A DNA stretch of 64,000 bases from Henckelia pumila (lineage: Eukaryota > Streptophyta > Magnoliopsida > Lamiales > Gesneriaceae): the NCBI RefSeq assembly GCF_033568475.1, contig NW_027331842.1, forward strand, positions 434,001 through 498,000, given 5' to 3'. Numbering within the stretch: the first letter of the stretch is position 1; every line of letters begins with the position of its first letter. Both the position numbers and the translations under genes were made by a program. Shown here piece after piece: positions 34,946-46,308 of the stretch. The notes under the pieces were generated by a model that had not been told where the DNA came from, did no database searches, and saw only the letters and a list, made by a program, of their open reading frames with translations.

Positions 34946-36183
34946 ATAACCAATTTCAACCTTATATTCTTTATACTAAGAGTCCCTTTTTTGCTTCAAG
35001 TTTTTGACCCTTCCAAATCAAATGCAAAAAGATCAAGTTTTTTTTCTCTCCTGGCAAGAATGTGAAACAAATCTAGATAACCCAAAACAGGAAAATGTTT
35101 ACAGCGAAACAACTAGATCACACCATTACAGCATCTGAAGTATTTTCAATCCCAAGAATGGATTTTACAATCTGACCTGCCAACAAAAAACCAAATAAAA
35201 AAGCAAAAGCCCATCAAACTTAAAATTCAATAACAGATCTAGTAATACGCAAGGGTATGAACATTATGAACCACAAAGGAGAAGCGAAAAAATCCATCGT
35301 CCTCAATTTCTTGAACCCGTTACCAGATTACAAAATCGAAATACATCAATACCCGTCATAAAATTTTAAAACTTTTCGTTTTCTCGGCTTCAAAAATGAA
35401 ATCTTTTATGCCACCAAAAAAAAAACGAAATCTTTTATAACAACATGAAAGAGGAACCTCTTCGACGGTGACTCTTAGCCTTCCGCTCTACCAAAGAACA
35501 AAAAACGAGATAAACGGAAAAAAAACACAAAAAAGGTAAAAAGTGCAGAAATTGAATTTCATATCTTCAACATACAGAAACATGCGTAGACAGAGATAGA
35601 CCTGAAGGATGGATTGAAGGAGAGAGCCATGAAAGTGAGAGAGAGAAGAAGGAGAAAACGAAGAAGACGAAGAAGAAAAGATCGGCTTATCTTGTAACAA
35701 CACGATAAATTATTGCAACAGTTTCAATCAAGAAATGGATCAATGATTAGTCAAGATTAAGATAATCGAACAGCAAGCATAATACCGTACAAATCCTCCT
35801 ATATTTCCTAATTTTTCTGGGGTTTTCCCATTTAATTTCCAAGAAAAGAGAGAGAGAAAGAGAGTTGTTCTTTGAATGCGAGGATTTGTATTCACTTGTT
35901 ATGGGTGGTTTTGTCATGCTGTTTTGGGGTCCTACTCATAGCCGCAAATTGAGGAGATGGCGAGACTTGGTCAAATACACTATTTGACGTGTAACTTCGA
36001 TTCCGCTTGCCGGACGATTCACTTCGTTCAAGCAACTAATATTAACGTTAATGTGCTTGCTCGAACGTGTCCGAGTTGGTGGTGTCATAAATTCGAATTT
36101 TTCATCAACATTTTTTTAATTTATATTGTCGTACACGAATTGCACAGTATCGTTTGTTGGTTAGCTTGATTTATAGACTATTG
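34946..36183. other. PP2C leader intron, leader exon and promoter
   Basis: On the minus strand 35700-35602 is strongly CT-rich (TTCTTCTTCGTCTTC) and ends in TTCAG followed by GTCTATC, a good donor. This is the likely first, non-coding exon of the PP2C gene, so the gap to 34945 would be a leader intron. No other gene is seen. Confidence 0.45.
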
Positions 36184-36510
36184 CATTAGTCTTCGAGTTC
36201 ATGATCCAATACGTATTAAAATATAGCAATCGCGAGTTCTATCATCCTCATAAATTTATTAAAGTTAATATTGATAATGTGACTAAATATAAATAATTAG
36301 ATTAAAGGTTATGATAGTAGAGTAGGTCTTCCATGAGATAATCACATTAGTCTTCGAGTTCATGATCCAATACGTATTGAAATGTAGCAACCGTGAGTTC
36401 TATCGTCATCATAAAATTATTAAAGTTAACATTGATAATGTGATTAAATATAAATGATTAGATTTAAGGTTATGATAGTAGAGTAAGTCTTCCGTGAGAT
36501 AATCACATAT
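36184..36510. repeat. tandem duplication, unit ~161 bp
   Basis: The text beginning CATTAGTCTTCGAGTTCATG at 36184 recurs at 36345 and continues to about 36505, ending GAGATAATCACAT. The copies are roughly 90% alike. The 3' part resembles a dispersed 'agtaggtct...gtgagat' repeat common in asterid intergenic DNA. Confidence 0.7.
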
Positions 36511-37259: not shown

Positions 37260-38206
37260 TGACAGAAATCGTATTGTAATTGTAGGTTAAAATAAAGAGT
37301 CAGTGTTGTCCGCGGTGTCACAACATCAACGACAACACAGTGCAGCGAAAAATAAATAAAAATAAATAACACAAGAAATTAATTTTGCACGAGTATAAAA
37401 ACTCGTGCGGGTGTCTTAGGGCTAAATATCACTAGTAAACGTAAGAATAGTCTTACAAAGTAATCCTAGTGATTTTACGAAAAGTCATTAAATCCTAAAT
37501 TTCTCAACAAGTTGAGAAATCAAACTTGCATCATAAATAAATCAGAGTAAAAACAATAGATGCAACTCTCGTAGCCTAAATTTGAAGAGACAGTAAAGAT
37601 CTTCAACAACACAGTTCCCACATTGTTGTCTCTGATGTCTTCAACACGAACGGCAGCACGGGGACAAGCAACAACGATGGTTGCAAAACTTCTTCAGAAT
37701 CTTCGAATTCTTCAATGTAATTTTCTTTGAAAGCTCTTCTGAATTCTCCTCTGAAGTGTGTTCTTGTTTGTGCGCAGAATCCCCTCTTTATAGATTAGCT
37801 TTCACGTATAAAAGGGATTTCCTTGTAGAGTCCTACACAATAAGGAAATAAATCTTTGTTAGGAATAAGACTCTTTTAAATATAATTGATAATATCTTGA
37901 TAATATATACACAATATTTCCTTATCAAGATAATACTCAATCTAGGTAAATATTTTATCTCAATATTTTCGATAATTGCACATAAATATTTACCCTATCA
38001 TATCAATTCATATCTTGATAATATTTCATAAATCCTTTCAATTCGATATCAAGATATAATTAAGTTAAATATCTATCCTAAATATATTATCAAGATCATA
38101 GAATATTTAACCATATCATATCAAATCTTTTGTCTAGAAGGCAAAATTCAATATTCTAATTAGCACGCTTAAGGAAAAGATTTTCAAGAAATTAATATTC
38201 CTTTCA
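37260..38206 (-). repeat. 3' LTR of the copia element
   Basis: This 947-base LTR begins TGACAGAAATCG and ends CCTTTCA in plus-strand reading. It is about 98% identical to the other LTR. It carries two of the double palindromes, near 37301 and 37622. Confidence 0.92.
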
Positions 38207-41200
38207 ATCTCCCCCTTTTTGCCTTTTTGGACAAAACCAGCACAAACAATTTTAAACATAAACTCCCCTTGAGTTTAAAACACTTCTCCCTCTGAATTGT
38301 AAGTCTCCCCCTGAAGGTGTTGTCCCTCGTGTTGGCAACACCAAGGATAACACGAACCTTGACGCTTAGAGATTCTATAATTCATATATCAGAGCATAAG
38401 AGAGGTAGAAATAGTTATTCTAGTTAAAGTATATCAGAGCAATTAAGGCACATAACTAGATCAAAACAAAAAGAGATAAAAAAATCAGAAAATTAAGGTT
38501 AAGATGAGATAAGGAAAAAATATGGGGTGACACCAATCAATCTAAAATTGATCAGTATCGGTGACACCAATCAATCTAAAATTGATCAGTATCAGATCCC
38601 TCCTGATCTTCAGTGTCCTCATCCTCATCGTCCTTAGTCCCAGATGGACCAGCCTCATCTTGTGCATTCTCTCCCCCTTTTTGGCCAGAAATGCCAAATC
38701 TTGTACGACAGTCACCTAACAAGGCTCCATAATGATCCAAGTCCTCCTGGGCTTGGGAAACTTCTTTTCAGCATGAGCCATGAGAGCCTGAATGATAGAA
38801 ACATAAAATTCCCGAGAAGAGGGTGTGTGCACAATTTCATCAGTTTCTTCAGTGTTTTCTCCCGTGTTGGCAACACCGGGAACAACATCAGCACCAGTAA
38901 CAGCAGCAGTAGATTCAGACCAAGGAAGGTAAAGGTTTCTCTTCTCTCTTATTAAATCAGCTGCAACCTGCAGATCTTCAGATAGTTCAGAGATACATTC
39001 ACCAAAATCACAAAGCAAACCTTGAAACTCCAAAATTCCATAGATGAAAGATGGAAAAGGCACTTGATGGATTTTAAGCTTCCATCTGCAAACTAGAGTA
39101 TAGTCTTGAATACGAGAAAGTGCTCTCATTCCCTATAACAAATGACACAAACGCTTGTGGTCGAGTCACCACGTTGAAGCTTGTAGAAAGCATCCAATAG
39201 CATAAGATAGAGTAGAAGGATGTGAACTGTGCAACAGATAGTTGTCTAGGAAACTTTTGAGCAAACCACCGATGAGTAAGCAGTAGCTTCATGAATATTA
39301 GGGTGGTTCCTTTCTTCAACATCCGATGTGTCATAAAGAGTATTGATTGTGGCAGGGTTGAACTCAAAAAGCTTTTCTCTCAAAAAAAATTCCAGCACTG
39401 ATTTCCTGCTGTAGAGCACCACTGCAATAAAATAGCTTTTGATCCTTCAAAAATTCAACCAAATTGATCCTTTCATAGGCATCCACATCGATATTCTTCT
39501 CATCAATCAGCATCGATTCACATACAAGAGCCACAGAACAGTATCTTCTCCATAGTAGAACTTGTGGTAAAAGACAGTAGTCAAATAAAATTCAGCAGCA
39601 GCCGTGTTGTCTGTGATCTTGGCAACACTATCAACAACACCAGCATCAGCATCATCTTCCTCGAAAAACTTGATTCCTCACTAGCTTAAGCATCAACCTA
39701 ATCTTAGATGTGGAGGAATTATAAGATACATTGGGCTTGATTGCAGCAAATTATTCCAGCATCTCTTTATCAAGCTCATCATCGAAAGGTTGAGCAAAAA
39801 CAACCACAGAATATCAGCCTTCCCTTGCTTCAGAATGTCCAGAACTTGAGTCAAGGAAGCTTCAACATCATCATAAAAGACAATTTTCTCAATAGCAATA
39901 GGAGGAACAAAAACATCAAATTCAATCATCAATCGATACTCGGCCAATAAGGCTTCATAGTATACACTGTCTTCCTTCTCCTCTCTTATTTTCTTTACTA
40001 CATGATCCATCAAAGATTGTACAAGAGCATGAGTGATCTGCAGAAAATCAGCTGTGGAAGCACTGTTGCGCGCAGTGTTGGCAACACGAGGCACAACATC
40101 AAATTCAGACCAAGTAGGTCTATTTTCCTTTTTCAGCAAAATATGAGCAACCTTCAATTCTTAACCAACCAGAGACAAAGACACATCAATGTATCGGATA
40201 AAGCCATATTATTCCAGAATCCTAAAGATGAGGGATGGAAAAGACAAATTTGTGAACTTTATCAACCTCCATCAGCAAATTGAAATATGAACTTGAATAT
40301 CAACTTCACCAAACTTGAAAGGAAATCAAGTTCCAATTGCAAAAATTATCACTCCTTGTACTTGGTTACCACAATAAAGTTGGTTGAAGGAGTCTCGTTC
40401 TTCACAATACTAATTGATTTTCAGCAGAACTCTTTTCTTTTCAACATCAAAAGTGCGATATAGAGCAGTGATAACAACAGAATCAAACATCTATTCGCTC
40501 ATGCACAGACACTCTGTCAAAATTGGTAGATTGCTCAGCATCTACACCAGCAGCGAGGTTTGTAAAGATTTTCAAAACAGGCTTTCGACTGTGATGAACA
40601 AAAGCAAAGACAGTAGCAAAAATACCTCGAGTCTTGAACAAATTTAACCAAATTCTGCCTCTTGCAAGCATCCAGATCAATCTTCTTCTCTTCAATGAAC
40701 TCATGGTTGACATACAGATGTCAATCAACAGTAGAAGCTTCTGAATATAAATTGTGAGATAAGAAAAGTGACATGTCACACTCTGCATAAATAGTGTTGC
40801 CTCCAGTGTTAGCAACACCATTCACAACATCATCACCAGTAGAATCTTTAGTATTCGCTTCCTCAAATTCGTCATCCTCAGAGATGAAAGATGAACTACC
40901 ATAAATATTTGGCCTGTTATCTGCAAGTTTCTGTTGCATATCTGCATCAGGTTCTTCCTCAATGATAGCATAATTAGGCACATGTTTGGAAAAACCAAAA
41001 ACAAAAAGACAATCTGATTAGCCCAAAAATCGGATAAGCTTAAATATAATCAAAGAGAGAGAATGTAGGAAGACAATTTTATGACTGCAAAGACCAATTA
41101 AGCATAAGAATGATCAAATCAATGAGTAATATATGCTTAAAAGAAATTTATTGGTCAGTAAAAAGAAATTCAAACATTCAAACAGTCACCTTCTGAAAAA

Positions 41201-42080
41201 CTCATCCAGAAACACTTACCAACGAAAATTATTATGGGTAAAACTTTTCAAATCGAGGAAATAAAATCCAACCCAATTATGAAAATAATTCGAGATTGAA
41301 AGCAATCAAAATTCCCATAAATAACTCCACATCGGCTCAACTCCACTACATCATTGTTAATCACAAAATTCATTTTTCAGTAGATAGAGTATTTCACCAA
41401 ATTTGTTCGTTTAGAATGTCAAACCCTGAACATAAAATATTCACAATTCTGAATGCATATGCATGTCTTATTTTATGCTTAAAACAGAATGTAACATAAA
41501 AATAAAATGCAACCACATGCATATGATATGTTCACAAGTGTAGTGTTGCCCCTCGTGTTGACAACATCATCAACAACACCATAGTTTTTCAAAAAGTATT
41601 TGAAACTTACACACTTGATTACCCTTGATTTCAGAAAATTTTCAAAAGTGGTAGCCTGCACACTAAAAGAACAGTCTTCATTGGACTCAATTAGGTAGCT
41701 TTTTCCATTTTCTTCCGATTATTTATAAAGTTTGTACATATGACATTGGTCATCAAACTTATTAAAAAGTTGAACACTGAATTTGCAAAACCACCTTTCA
41801 CATGGGACAAGAACATGGAATACACGTACATCCCTCAACTACTTAGTGGTTTAGTCAGAGTTCCATAAACAAGGGTCAGTGTGTTTAATAAAAATTTTGC
41901 TGAAAAACTTGGCATCAGTCAAATCACTGTAACAGAGATTAAAATACTACACATCACAAAGTGAATGCAAAATGCCTAAAATCCTAAACATGCATGAAAA
42001 AGAAAAACAACAGTGTTGTCTATGGTGTTGTAACACCGGCGACAACACCAGCAAAGGATTATAATGCACACATGCTGAGA
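38207..42080 (-). other. extra 3' region of the copia element, with internal duplication
   Basis: This ~3.9 kb between RNase H and the 3' LTR has only fragmentary open frames. Two diverged units, about 38.72-39.66 kb and 39.92-40.83 kb, align with an offset of ~1.19-1.21 kb; their fragments resemble each other (for example IIQALMAHAEKKF and ALVQSLMDHVVKK). Sire-type copia elements carry a poorly conserved extra or env-like region here. No membrane or envelope feature can be claimed. Confidence 0.6.
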
Positions 42081-42085
42081 GACCT

Positions 42086-45000
42086 TCAAAGAGTATAGAA
42101 GCTCTCGAAAACAAAAATTTTTGTGAATATAACTGCCATTTGGTTATTAGTTCCAACAAAATTCATTCGGATCACACTTTTTTCTACCAAATCTTGAATA
42201 AAGTGACGCCAAATGTCAATGGGTTTTGTGCGAGAGTGTTGAACTGGGTTTTTTGAAATGTCAATCGCACTCAAATTATCACAATAAAAAATGGGAGGTT
42301 GACTTTTAAATCCACAATCCTCTAACATTTGGTTCATCAAAAAAGGTTGTGTACAAAAAGTTCTATCTCCAAGACAACAACACCCTCTCATAGTGCTTTT
42401 ACTATCATTAAAATCCCCAGCACAATCAACACAACCAAAACCAACAAGATTGGTATCCCTAGTATACCACAATCCCAAATCCAATGTACCCGAAACATAT
42501 TTCAAAATTCTCATAACAACTTTTACATGGGTTACCTTTGGATCAGATTGGTACCTAGCACATAAACACACACTAAACATGATATCAATATGAATTGCAG
42601 TTAAGTAAAAAAAACTTCCAATCATGATGTGGTACATGGTGTTGGCAACACCGGCCGCAACACCATTCTTACCTAACTTTTCACTAGATCCCATTGGTGT
42701 TTTCATGCTTTTAGTATTCTCATAACAGAACTTTTTCACCAAAATTTCAACATACTTGCTTTGGGACAGAAAAATACCATCATGCATTTTCTTAACATCA
42801 AAACCAAGAGAATAACTCAACTCAACTACCATGCTCAATTCAAAGATGGAAGACATGTATTCAACAAAATCATCAACATGTTTTTGATCAGAAGAAGCAC
42901 AAAAAATGATGTCATCCACAAAAACTTGGCAAACAGGTATTTCACCTTTGTACTTATGAATAAAAAAGGTTTTATCAACCTTACCTCGTTTGAAGCCAAT
43001 TTCAAGATGATATTCAATCAACCTTACCTCATTTGTGGACATGAAACTCGAGCATACTAACCCAATCACCTTGAGGTAGTCCACTTGTCCTTCATTCGAG
43101 TTTGCATTGTTCCAGAAGCATCTTCAATAATCTGTGATGATGGATGGTTCTTTTGTATTTTGCTTGAAATGTCCTTACCATCATTTATCAAAACAACAAC
43201 ATCATCGCTTGGTTGATTATTCTCAGGTTCAGTCACTGTTGAACCCAGTGTTGTGCTTGATGTTGCAACATCAAAGGCAACACCTGAATCTTTCAATGGA
43301 CTGAAAATTTCCAGCAGATCATCCTTAGTAGTTTTTCCTTTGATATCCGCAAAATCATCAAAATCTACATTAATAGATTTCATAACTGCTCCAGTTCTCA
43401 TATTAAACATTCTACATACATGATTATTCAAAGCATATCCAAGAAACAAGCATTTTTCACTTTTGGAATCAAATTTGGCTAGGTGATCTCTTTCATTCAA
43501 AATAAAATAAATACAGCCAAAAACATGAAAGAATTTAAGGTTTGGCCTCTTTCCCATGAGAATCTCATAGGAAGTCATAGTAGAACCACTCCTTAAGTAT
43601 ACTCGATTCAATGCACGACAAGCTGTATCCACGACTTCTGCCCAAAATCTTTTTGAGATATTCTTTGAGCTCAGCATCACCCTAGCCATCTCCTGCAACG
43701 TTCTATTCTTTCTTTTGACCATGCCATTGTGTTGAGGAGTTTTTGGGGCAAAAAACTCATGTGATATGCCATTCTTATCACAAAAATATAAAGATTTTTC
43801 AAAAATCTTACCATGATCGGTCCTGATCCTTCCAACCTTCAAGTTATGTAAGTTAGTAATCTTTGTGAGTAAATTATTAAAAATATCAAACATATCCAAC
43901 TTCTCTTTGAAGAATCTTACTCGTGTAAAACGTGAGAAGTCATCAACACAAAAAAAAAAAAAAAACTTCTTACCTCCATAGCTTTCCAGTTCCATAGGAT
44001 CCATTGACTCCAAATGCAAAAGTTCAATGCACCGTGTTGTCCCAAAGTGTTGTAACACGGGGTGCAACACGAGAGTTTTCTTACCTATTTGGCATGCACC
44101 ACAAACATATGGAACTCCAGAATTCAAAATAAACATACCTTGGACAGCTTCATACTTACACATATTTTTCAATGCCTCCAAATTTACATGACACAACTTT
44201 TGGTGCCATAAATCAAGATCATTCACTTTCATGTAGTTGCAGACACGTTCCTCTCCAAATTGGTAGTAATCTACTGATCTTGTACCTATCAAAACACATA
44301 TGTTAGTATAATCAAAAACTTCACAAGTATTTTTATCAAATTTGACATGAAAATCATCATCACACAATTTACTAAAAGATATCAAATTTGAGTTTAGTCC
44401 CTTGACATGTAGCACATTGTGAAACTTTGAAAATCCTTCCACGTTCGGTGTTCCTTTGCCACCAATCCTTCCTTTTGCACCACCTCCGTAAGTCACTTTA
44501 CCACATCCTTGTTCAATATGATCCATGAGATGTTCTTTCAAACCTGTAATGTGGCGTGAGCTTCCACTATGAAAGTACCAGTGACCTAGAATCACTTCAA
44601 GCTTGGCCATGGCAGACTTCAAATCAGAATTTTCTTTAGAGAGAGTTGTGTTCAAATTGTTCTGTTTGATCCGATCAGCATACAACTCCTCATAAAGTTT
44701 CTGTACACACTCTAGAGTTATATCATCATTGACAACTTCCTGATCACCAAAATTACCAAGAGTAGATGTATTCAAGCAAACTGATTTTTCACTGGTGTTG
44801 CGACTTGGTGTTGCAACACCGGAGGCAACACCCAGTGGGTTGACTTGAAAACACCTCTTTTCTTTCAACAATGCAGCCAGAGAGGTATGACCTTCTTCAT
44901 CATTCTGTTCTTGATCTCTGTCAGAGTCATCATCACTCAAGAACATAGTCATACCTTTGTGGAATCGATTTGCATATTCAATTGCATAGTGTCCATATCC

Positions 45001-45297
45001 ATTGCATTTCCTGCATTGCACATAATCAAAATTCTTGGTATTAGATTCATAATTAACAACATACCTTGGTCGAGATGGTTCTCGAGTAGGTGACACCCTC
45101 AACAGATTCTCAGGAGCAGGAAAACTAGGGTGCTTAAATTGTTGTCCAATTTTTTGTTTGTCTTTTCTCTTCAAATAATCTTCAAACTTCTGTGAGATCA
45201 AGGAAATTGAATCATCACATAAATCTGACTTATTGACTTTCGGTGGTCGGAATCTGACGTCAACAACCGACACGTCCATGATAAACCTACAAAACAA
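42086..45297 (-). other. gag-pol remains of the copia element
   Basis: From 45297 downward come a CCHC knuckle region, a protease-like segment, integrase with its HHCC-type and catalytic regions, then reverse transcriptase (QVFVDDIIFCAS) and RNase H. The order, integrase before reverse transcriptase, is that of Ty1/copia. The coding part is incomplete and broken, so the copy should not be able to move by itself. Confidence 0.88.
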
Positions 45298-45348
45298 AAA
45301 TAACCAGAATCTCTCTTAGTAAGGTCAAGAGTTGGCTTTGATACCACT

Positions 45349-46308
45349 TGACAGAAATCGTATTGTAATTGTAGGTTAAAATAAAGAGTCAGTGTTGTCC
45401 GCGGTGTCACAATATCAACGACAACACAGTGCAGCGGTAAATAAATAAAAATAAATAACACAAAAAATTAATTTTGCACGAGTATAAAAACTCGTGCGGG
45501 TGCCTTAGGGCTAAATATCACTAGTAAACGTAAGAATAGTCTTACAAAGTAATCCTAGTGATTTTACGAAAAGTCATTAAATCCTAAATTTCTCAACAAG
45601 TTGAGAAATCAAACTTGCATCATAAATAAATAAGAGTAAAAACAATAGATGCAACTCCCGTAGCCTAAATTTGAAGAGACAGTAAAGATCTTCAACAACA
45701 CAGTTCCCACAGTGTTGTCTCTGATGTCTTCAACACGAACGGCAGCACGGGGACAAGCAACAACGATGGTTGCAAAACTTCTTCAGAATCTTCGAATTCT
45801 TCTATGTGATTTTCTTTGAAAGCTCTTTTGAATTCTCCTCTGAAGTGTGTTCTTGTTTGTGCGCAGAATCCCCTCTTTATAGATTAGCTTTCACGTATAA
45901 AAGGGATTTCCTTGTAGAGTCCTACACAATAAGGAAATAAATCTTTGTTAGGAATAAGACTCTTTTAAATATAATTGATAATATCTTGATAATATATGAT
46001 AATCAATAATACACAATATTTCCTTATCAAGATAATACTCAATCTAGGTAAATATTTTATCTCAATATTTTTGATAATAGCACATAAATATTTACCCTAT
46101 CATATCAATTCATATCTTGATAATATTTCATAAATCCTTTCAATTCGATATCAAGATATAATTAAGTTAAATATCTATCCTAAATATATTATCGAGATCA
46201 TAGAATATTTAATCATATCATATCAAATCTTTTGTCTAGAAGGCAAAATTCAATATTTTAATTAGCACGCTTAAGGAAAAAATTTTCAAAAAATTAATAT
46301 TCCTTTCA
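45349..46308 (-). repeat. 5' LTR of the copia element
   Basis: This 960-base LTR matches the one at 37260-38206. It is longer mainly through one small insertion in an AT-rich part. Palindrome copies lie near 45390 and 45711. Confidence 0.92.

What the first reader, a model, noticed from the sequence alone, without database searches (positions are those of the whole stretch)
37301..45749. Dispersed ~39-bp double palindrome peppered through one copia element
The same motif, GTGTTG-n(6-8)-GTGTTG-n(1-2)-CAACAC-n(6-7)-CAACAC, occurs at about 37301, 37622, 38316, 38851, 39603, 40061, 40792, 41541, 42011, 42625, 43248, 44033 and 44793, and again in the other LTR at 45390 and 45711. Outer and inner arms pair with each other, so each copy could fold into a hairpin. 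The flanks are unrelated, so these look like insertions of one small unit. I found none outside this element. Spacing is 320-790 bases with no clusters. This resembles the palindromic elements of Rickettsia that sit inside genes. Whether it is a tiny parasite of the retroelement, a binding site, or a product of template switching is open.
Basis: partly seen in the sequence, partly recalled or inferred. Interest (0 to 1): 0.88.

Follow-up and report, generated by a model that had tools for sequence, protein, structure and literature searches.

The report
Repeated four-part palindrome built into retrotransposon
A group of jumping genes in an African-violet-family plant carries the same precisely built 37-letter palindrome about every 600 letters, even inside protein-coding parts, where selection seems to act on the DNA letters: probably landing sites for a protein that must cover the whole element.

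Summary
The element at 37260-46308 (Ty1-copia, Sirevirus type, minus strand) has 15 copies of GTGTTG-N6/7-GTGTTG-N0/1-CAACAC-N6/7-CAACAC. The rest of the window has one weak match. The host genome (Henckelia pumila, inferred) holds 3,335 exact three-half-site strand matches, control 0. 20 of 20 further hits that I picked lie in the same element group.

The insertion reading fails. Where relatives align, 95 of 95 sites fall on the window's sites (52 of 150 could not be aligned). No empty site was seen in 141 aligned instances. Two pol sites have the same protein length with and without the motif.

It is not ordinary sequence either. Half-site fourfold codon positions agree in 92.5% against 52.7% outside, at equal protein identity. 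20 of 20 elements chosen without the motif carry both tested sites. One site exists in different registers that keep the DNA motif but change the peptide.

Best reading: an array of double-stranded DNA sites for a multimeric protein. Its role is inferred, possibly VANC-like anti-silencing. Erythranthe and Salvia proteins hint at related motifs with another first base.

The parts
37260..46308 (-). Host element: Ty1-copia retrotransposon of Sirevirus type, target-site duplication AACAT on both sides
   Evidence: LTRs 37260-38206 and 45349-46308, 18 differences in 947 aligned bases, PBS region TGGTATCAAAGCC, three AGGGGGAG tracts, AGGGGGAG-AT-TG junction; gag_pre-integrs, Pol_BBD, SH3_retrovirus and RVT_2 above cut-off; rve below its cut-off
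37303..37338 (.). Motif site, 3' LTR, 3 mismatches, gaps 6/0/6
37623..37659 (.). Motif site, 3' LTR, 5 mismatches, gaps 6/1/6
38317..38353 (.). Motif site, between 3' LTR and ORF3 region, 1 mismatch
   Evidence: 8 aligned relatives, 7 at 4 or fewer mismatches and 1 at 5
38852..38888 (.). Motif site in ORF3 region, 2 mismatches
   Evidence: 6 of 6 aligned relatives
39604..39640 (.). Motif site in ORF3 region, 2 mismatches
   Evidence: positional matches (L009, L013, L026, L028)
40063..40099 (.). Motif site in ORF3 region, 2 mismatches
   Evidence: 1 aligned relative
40794..40830 (.). Motif site in ORF3 region, 2 mismatches
   Evidence: no relative aligned here
41543..41579 (.). Motif site between ORF3 region and pol, 1 mismatch
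   Evidence: 17 of 17 aligned relatives
42013..42048 (.). Motif site just 3' of the pol frame, 1 mismatch
   Evidence: 16 aligned relatives, 15 at 4 or fewer mismatches
42629..42663 (.). Motif site inside the RT/RNase H frame (peptide GVAAGVANT); in relatives the fourth half-site is weak or displaced where the protein keeps YRSMIG
   Evidence: 17 aligned relatives, 14 at 4 or fewer mismatches
43248..43283 (.). Motif site inside pol, between integrase and RT, 2 mismatches
   Evidence: 20 of 20; 19 of 20 aligned relatives at 4 or fewer mismatches
44034..44070 (.). Motif site inside the integrase frame (VLHPVLQHFGTT), more than one DNA register among relatives
   Evidence: 20 of 20; 28 of 30 aligned relatives at 4 or fewer mismatches
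44795..44831 (.). Perfect motif site in the gag-pol frame (GVASGVATPSRNT)
   Evidence: 6 of 6 aligned relatives
45392..45427 (.). Motif site, 5' LTR, 4 mismatches
45712..45748 (.). Motif site, 5' LTR, 4 mismatches, downstream of a putative TATA box (seen by eye)
38716..41017 (-). Degraded extra (envelope-position) reading frame; longer frames of relatives match PF20167
   Evidence: window fragments: no Pfam match; 5 relatives: L009, L010, L015, L016, L026
45982..46158 (.). Separate LTR palindromes TATCWWGATA (4 per LTR; the other LTR has them at 37893-38056), upstream of the putative TATA box, the place of known Sirevirus RM boxes
   Evidence: 8 of the 9 exact matches in the window lie in the element

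Best explanation
The motif is a cis-acting recognition site for a protein that binds double-stranded DNA as a multimer. Four half-sites RTGTTR are arranged as two direct repeats 12-13 bp apart, mirrored across a 0-1 bp centre, and the site recurs about every 600 bp through a Sirevirus-type clade. Shown: a precise architecture, shared positions in relatives, no sign of insertion, and conservation of the nucleotides themselves inside coding sequence. The role I think likeliest is a chromatin or anti-silencing role: a trans factor coats the element and keeps it open, as VANC does for VANDAL transposons. Who encodes the factor is unknown.
For: Half-site distances peak at 12/13 and 6/7 bp with few divergent pairs. 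Fourfold third-base identity is 136/147 in half-sites, 35/71 in spacers and 1008/1911 outside, while amino-acid identity is equal (0.563 and 0.562). In the set chosen by integrase core, its diverged members give 58/67 in half-sites against 336/619 elsewhere, and 20 of 20 carry both tested sites. At the integrase site 12 of 20 copies have gaps 6/0/7, 3 have 8/0/7 and 5 have 6/1/6; the peptide changes (VLQHFGTT, VLPTSVTT) while the DNA motif stays (similar peptides in Primulina). Half-site degeneracy is similar on both sides of the dyad, and bases next to the centre, which a hairpin with a 0-1 base loop cannot pair, are about as conserved as their outer equivalents. Spacing is even, with a longer gap over the RT core (1121 and 1116 bp in L010 and L028). 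Genome hits 3335 against 0 control; 20 of 20 picked hits in the same group; 3 of 3 stretches of other copia elements have none.
Against: No binding protein was identified; the structure model of the extra ORF was useless (mean pLDDT 39.7). VANC sites lie in non-coding tandem arrays, unlike these. LTR sites in this copy lie downstream of a putative TATA box, so an RNA role is not excluded; with gap 0 the apical UUGCAA could act as a self-complementary loop. Spacers show slight complementarity (0.40 against 0.35 shuffled, 3 of 2000 shuffles as high). In the integrase-chosen set as a whole, spacers (58/63) are nearly as conserved as half-sites (175/184), outside 1681/2022. Relatives are not independent, the loci were chosen by motif hits, and 52 of 150 sites in them could not be aligned. 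Two genome controls (C-variant, wrong spacing) did not complete.
Confidence: 0.6

Rival explanations
1. RNA-level signal: each site forms a hairpin or kissing loop in the genomic RNA and serves dispersed packaging, dimerisation or export.
For: LTR sites in the window copy lie downstream of a putative TATA box, so the sites could be in the RNA. The motif is self-complementary. Even spacing would suit packaging. Slight spacer complementarity. 14 double changes keep Watson-Crick pairing, 12 of them in the inner pair.
Against: On the sense strand, single 5'-side changes leave a mismatch in 128 cells; 3'-side changes leave G.U in 63 and a mismatch in 47. A 0-1 base centre leaves no room for a normal loop, yet those bases are conserved. 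U3 is only about 430 bp, so the lack of a site there means little. Coding bias could add to the asymmetry.
Confidence: 0.22
2. A tiny mobile or copied unit (RPE-like, or template switching) repeatedly inserted into the element.
For: Same unit at many places with unrelated flanks.
Against: 0 empty sites in 141 aligned instances (an empty site that breaks a local alignment would be missed). Same positions where alignable. Same protein length with and without the motif at the RT and integrase sites. Half-sites conserved while spacers are not.
Confidence: 0.04
3. Ordinary transcription-factor sites used as enhancers, of the kind of the Sirevirus RM boxes, that happen to lie in coding sequence too.
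For: Sireviruses are known for repeated palindromic boxes (PMC2829016, section 9 read). CAACA is recalled as the RAV AP2-domain site.
Against: The element has separate palindromes TATCWWGATA in U3, where RM boxes belong. Enhancer use does not easily explain sites spread at even distance through gag, pol and ORF3 regions at a cost to codon choice.
Confidence: 0.12
4. Protein-level repeat peptide (GVAxGVATxxxNT) under selection, with the DNA palindrome a by-product.
For: Two of the three gag-pol sites examined and the RT site read in one frame and give similar peptides.
Against: Synonymous positions are conserved in half-sites and not in spacers. The integrase site uses another frame and the peptide changes with the register. 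LTR and linker sites are not in the pol frame.
Confidence: 0.02

Closest known systems
Sirevirus repeated-motif (RM) boxes, Bousios et al. 2010, PMC2829016 (abstract, passages, section 9 seen)
   Same: Same retrotransposon group; short palindromes repeated many times in one element; sequence differs between families
   Different: [quoted passage not shown] This motif has four half-sites over 36-37 bp, lies in the lower LTR, linker and coding regions, and is evenly spread. U3 of this element has its own, separate palindromes.
VANC anti-silencing motifs of VANDAL transposons, Hosaka et al. 2017, PMC5735166 (passages seen)
   Same: Element-specific short DNA motif in many copies per element; motif differs between related families
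   Different: VANC motifs are 8-9 bp, same-orientation, dense tandem arrays in non-coding DNA of a DNA transposon, with a known element-encoded binder. Here: dyad-symmetric four-part sites, dispersed, also in coding DNA of a retrotransposon, binder unknown.
Rickettsia palindromic elements (RPE), recalled, not looked up
   Same: Palindromic unit found inside reading frames
   Different: RPEs are inserted units; here no insertion was found and the host frame keeps its length at the two sites tested.
Dispersed RNA packaging signals of RNA viruses, recalled, not looked up
   Same: Many degenerate copies of one motif along the genome, overlaid on coding sequence
   Different: Those are stem-loops with a conserved loop. 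Here the pairing rules are not clearly respected and the centre has no loop.

Membership tests
Sirevirus (Ty1-copia) | AGGGGGAG-type polypurine tract joined by AT to the TG of the LTR, with extra tract copies upstream | tested here: met
   AGGGGGAGATTG junction and 3 AGGGGGAG copies. That the tract is clustered in copies and followed by AT-TG is from passages of PMC2829016; the octamer letters are recalled
Sirevirus (Ty1-copia) | copia domains and initiator-Met-type PBS (PBS type recalled) | tested here: met
Sirevirus (Ty1-copia) | extra envelope-position ORF (in part of the genus) | tested here: met
   PF20167 in 5 relatives; the window copy is degraded
Sirevirus (Ty1-copia) | position in an RT tree among named Sireviruses | not tested
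   no named reference RT set was run
Sirevirus RM boxes | palindrome with CGG-CCG core | tested here: not met
   motif core is TGTT/AACA. Tnd-1, in the paper's own table, also lacks CGG-CCG
Sirevirus RM boxes | clustered in the upper LTR before the TATA box and upstream of ENV | tested here: not met
   LTR sites of the window copy lie after the putative TATA box; other sites lie through the gag, pol and ORF3 regions
VANC-type anti-silencing system | multi-copy motif specific to one element group | tested here: met
   20 of 20; 0 of 3 other copia stretches; small samples
VANC-type anti-silencing system | dense same-orientation tandem arrays in non-coding DNA | tested here: not met
VANC-type anti-silencing system | element-encoded protein that binds the motif and removes methylation | not testable with these tools
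   needs EMSA, ChIP and bisulfite data
VANC-type anti-silencing system | motif changes together at many sites between lineages | tested here: inconclusive
   protein-level hints in Erythranthe (C) and Salvia (A); no DNA from those species
Rickettsia-type palindromic element | inserted unit with empty sites in relatives | tested here: not met

The most novel reading that the evidence does not exclude
A retrotransposon clade of Lamiales carries a whole-element array of four-part DNA recognition sites written into its coding sequence. The sites keep their places between plant families while the first half-site letter changes in step at several sites per lineage (G in Gesneriaceae, C in Erythranthe, A in Salvia), following a co-evolving trans factor. 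This would be a retrotransposon counterpart of VANC anti-silencing, coded under the genes themselves.
Probability: 0.3. Interest if true: 0.93.

Novelty: new variant of a known kind. Interest (0 to 1): 0.8.

Why it matters
The recognition motifs of plant transposons that I read about sit in LTRs, introns and other non-coding parts. Here, by the codon evidence, recognition sites recur through the coding sequence of a retrotransposon and constrain synonymous positions. If they recruit a factor, they would explain how an element of about 9 kb can be marked end to end, and a 37-bp probe gives a direct handle on whether retrotransposons, like VANDAL DNA transposons, carry sequence-specific anti-silencing. 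The lineage differences, if confirmed on DNA, would make the arms race testable.

Tried and rejected
Rejected: inserted mini-element; chance; protein repeat. Weakened: RNA hairpin.

Led nowhere: structure of the PF20167 ORF (pLDDT 39.7, no fold search run); PDB sequence search (one hit at E 0.96); viral contigs pattern scan (17 contigs, one match each; 11 of 17 reach one site at 4 or fewer mismatches and none more than one) and relatives there (32 stretches matched, none a relative); paper searches (no report of the motif in the rows listed, which were only part of the papers found).

All-hexamer protein screen: no clear result in Paulownia, Humulus, Cannabis, Trifolium/Lotus, Rhodiola, Erythranthe_B, mixed eudicots and Acer. 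Unnamed contigs reached 3 sites for one hexamer from low-complexity peptides and Rosaceae reached 3 for TCCGAT (peptides not removed as duplicates), so 3 alone is not strong. Six further Primulina proteins, a positive control, gave only 2 for GTGTTG, tied with other hexamers.

Rows dropped: L020 and L024 from the sense-strand counts (orientation unclear); L001-L008 were not used beyond.
Full report
WHAT IS THERE. The element spans 37260-46308 on the minus strand, with LTRs 37260-38206 and 45349-46308, 5-bp target duplication AACAT, 18 differences in 947 aligned LTR bases, three AGGGGGAG tracts and the junction AGGGGGAG-AT-TG. Its domains are those of Ty1-copia. With the multiple tracts and the extra ORF (PF20167 in five relatives) it is a Sirevirus by the features I could test; the description is that of PMC2829016 (passages including the abstract; section 9 read). 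No RT tree was made. The genome is 885 Mb in 133 contigs.

THE MOTIF. Fifteen element sites fit GTGTTG-N-GTGTTG-N-CAACAC-N-CAACAC at 5 or fewer mismatches of 24. One lies elsewhere in the 64 kb at 5, none at 4 or fewer. In 20 further 10-kb loci chosen by motif clusters there are 134 sites at 4 or fewer mismatches, 110 of them with gaps 6-7/0-1/6-7 although 4-9/0-4/4-9 were allowed. Plain half-site distances give the same picture without the scanner: direct 12 bp 160, 13 bp 49; convergent 6 bp 31, 7 bp 79, then 18-20 and 30-33; divergent pairs are few. On 132 sense-oriented sites (18 loci and the window; L020 and L024 left out) the half-site is RTGTTR with a nearly fixed TGTT core.

GENOME. The three-half-site pattern (inner gap 1-2) matches 1657 + 1678 times, the reversed control 0 + 0. 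Some sites match on both strands, so sites are fewer. An A-variant with inner gap 0-1 matches 149 + 148 times (control 0), in keeping with R at the first base. I picked 20 further hits from the 100 listed places, all on contig C1 and outside the fetched loci: all 20 lie in this element group, 19 by blastn across the motif and one by its PF20167 frame. Three 5-kb stretches around other RVT_2 matches have no site at 5 or fewer mismatches; this is a small control and their lineage was not determined.

SAME SITES, NO INSERTION. Of 150 sites at 5 or fewer mismatches in the 20 loci, 95 map directly onto the element and all 95 fall within 3 bases of a window site; 52 have no alignment nearby, so for those the position is unknown. 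Over the fetched relatives, 141 aligned site instances give 131 at 4 or fewer mismatches, 10 at 5-6, none worse, and none with a gap of 15 or more; 278 of 278 other 49-bp windows of the element score above 6. A local alignment could miss an empty site that breaks it. Two coding sites were checked against motif-free relatives. In integrase, proteins of Erythranthe, Acer, Prunus, Pyrus, Malus, Cannabis, Trifolium and Cucumis lack the peptide, nearly all at the same length; a few rows (Aristolochia, one Acer) have gaps. In RT, 17 of 18 segments from PM to YL are 32 residues with and without the motif; the other (P0063) starts at an earlier proline. There the motif was built in place by substitution. 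In the RT site of L010 and others the fourth half-site is weak and displaced (gap 9) where the protein keeps YRSMIG.

SELECTION ON LETTERS. Comparing window pol with the motif-chosen loci at identical amino acids, fourfold third bases agree in 136/147 half-site positions, 35/71 spacer positions and 1008/1911 outside; amino-acid identity is 298/529 in motif codons and 6232/11087 outside. To avoid choosing by the motif I took 20 elements from the 150 integrase-core matches listed (of 26,911 candidates), spread from 97 to 68% identity. All 20 have both nearby sites at 4 or fewer mismatches. In those with low third-base identity, half-sites agree in 58/67 against 336/619 elsewhere. Over all 20 the contrast is smaller and spacers are almost as conserved (175/184, 58/63, outside 1681/2022), as many are close relatives. 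Sequences are related, so p-values are only a guide. At the integrase site 12 copies have gaps 6/0/7, 3 have 8/0/7 and 5 have 6/1/6; the first kind encode VLQHFGTT or close, the last VLPTSVTT or close (peptide printed for 17 of 20): the third half-site moves by one base and the peptide changes. Primulina proteins show both kinds of peptide.

EVEN SPACING. Intervals in the window are 320-786 bp, CV 0.26, never reached in 20,000 random placements. Eight other loci have CV 0.26-0.66 (several are incomplete). The gap over the conserved RT core is long in relatives (1121 and 1116 bp in L010 and L028). The window copy lacks roughly 450-500 bp there and roughly 520 bp near 44.6 kb, where relatives carry one more site.

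OTHER PLANTS. Back-translation of proteins finds 23 sites at 0 and 31 at 1 mismatch in 30 Gesneriaceae proteins (shuffled 0 and 0), and 1 and 0 in 34 others or unnamed (shuffled 0 and 0), the one being P0122 from an unnamed contig. Asking all 4096 hexamers in this architecture, four Gesneriaceae proteins give GTGTTG first with 9. In one search Erythranthe gives CTGTCG 3 and CTGTTG 2 (tied with other CNGTNG), Salvia ATGTTG 3; one-shuffle maxima are 1 and 2. Other groups reach 1-2, but unnamed contigs 3 (low complexity) and Rosaceae 3, and a further Primulina set only 2. Two Erythranthe sites align with Gesneriaceae sites and one with a Salvia site. A protein fixes only part of each half-site, so this is a lead and not proof.

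HOW IT WORKS. Shown: a fixed dyad-symmetric architecture, shared positions, nucleotide-level conservation, dispersal over the element. Inferred: a multimeric dsDNA-binding protein. On RNA pairing: single 5'-side changes leave a mismatch in 128 cells, 3'-side changes leave G.U in 63 and a mismatch in 47, and 14 double changes keep pairing; G to A on the 5' side is 105 against 63 C to T on the 3' side. Bases at the loop-less centre are conserved. Coding bias could add to this asymmetry. Function is a guess guided by VANC, where the motif is element-specific and hypomethylation spreads over the element (PMC5735166, passages), and by the need to cover the whole length. The PF20167 ORF is an unproven candidate; PMC11728184 (passages) links this domain to Athila ORF1.

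LITERATURE. I saw no report of this motif. Searches: in an open-licence library only, with lists capped in several. The RM boxes of PMC2829016 are the nearest kin, and this element also has LTR palindromes TATCWWGATA upstream of the putative TATA box, 4 per LTR.

Noticed in passing
37893-38056 and 45982-46158: Four TATCWWGATA palindromes per LTR upstream of the putative TATA box, a likely AT-rich version of the Sirevirus RM boxes, separate from the GTGTTG motif.
   Followed up: partly
39315-39507 and 40440-40696: The ORF3 region looks duplicated (76-77% identity of two stretches); each half carries two motif sites 752 and 731 bp apart.
   Followed up: no
43024-43044 and 44587-44618: The window copy lacks roughly 450-500 bp of the RT core and roughly 520 bp of gag-pol present in relatives, the latter with one more motif site.
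   Followed up: partly
38526-38593: Perfect 34-bp tandem duplication inside the element.
   Followed up: no
36175-36496: A 161-bp unit in two tandem copies (89%) just outside the element.
   Followed up: no
G000 C1:60030243-60030521: Three ATGTTG-variant sites within about 300 bp, a possible local expansion of the motif in one family.
   Followed up: no
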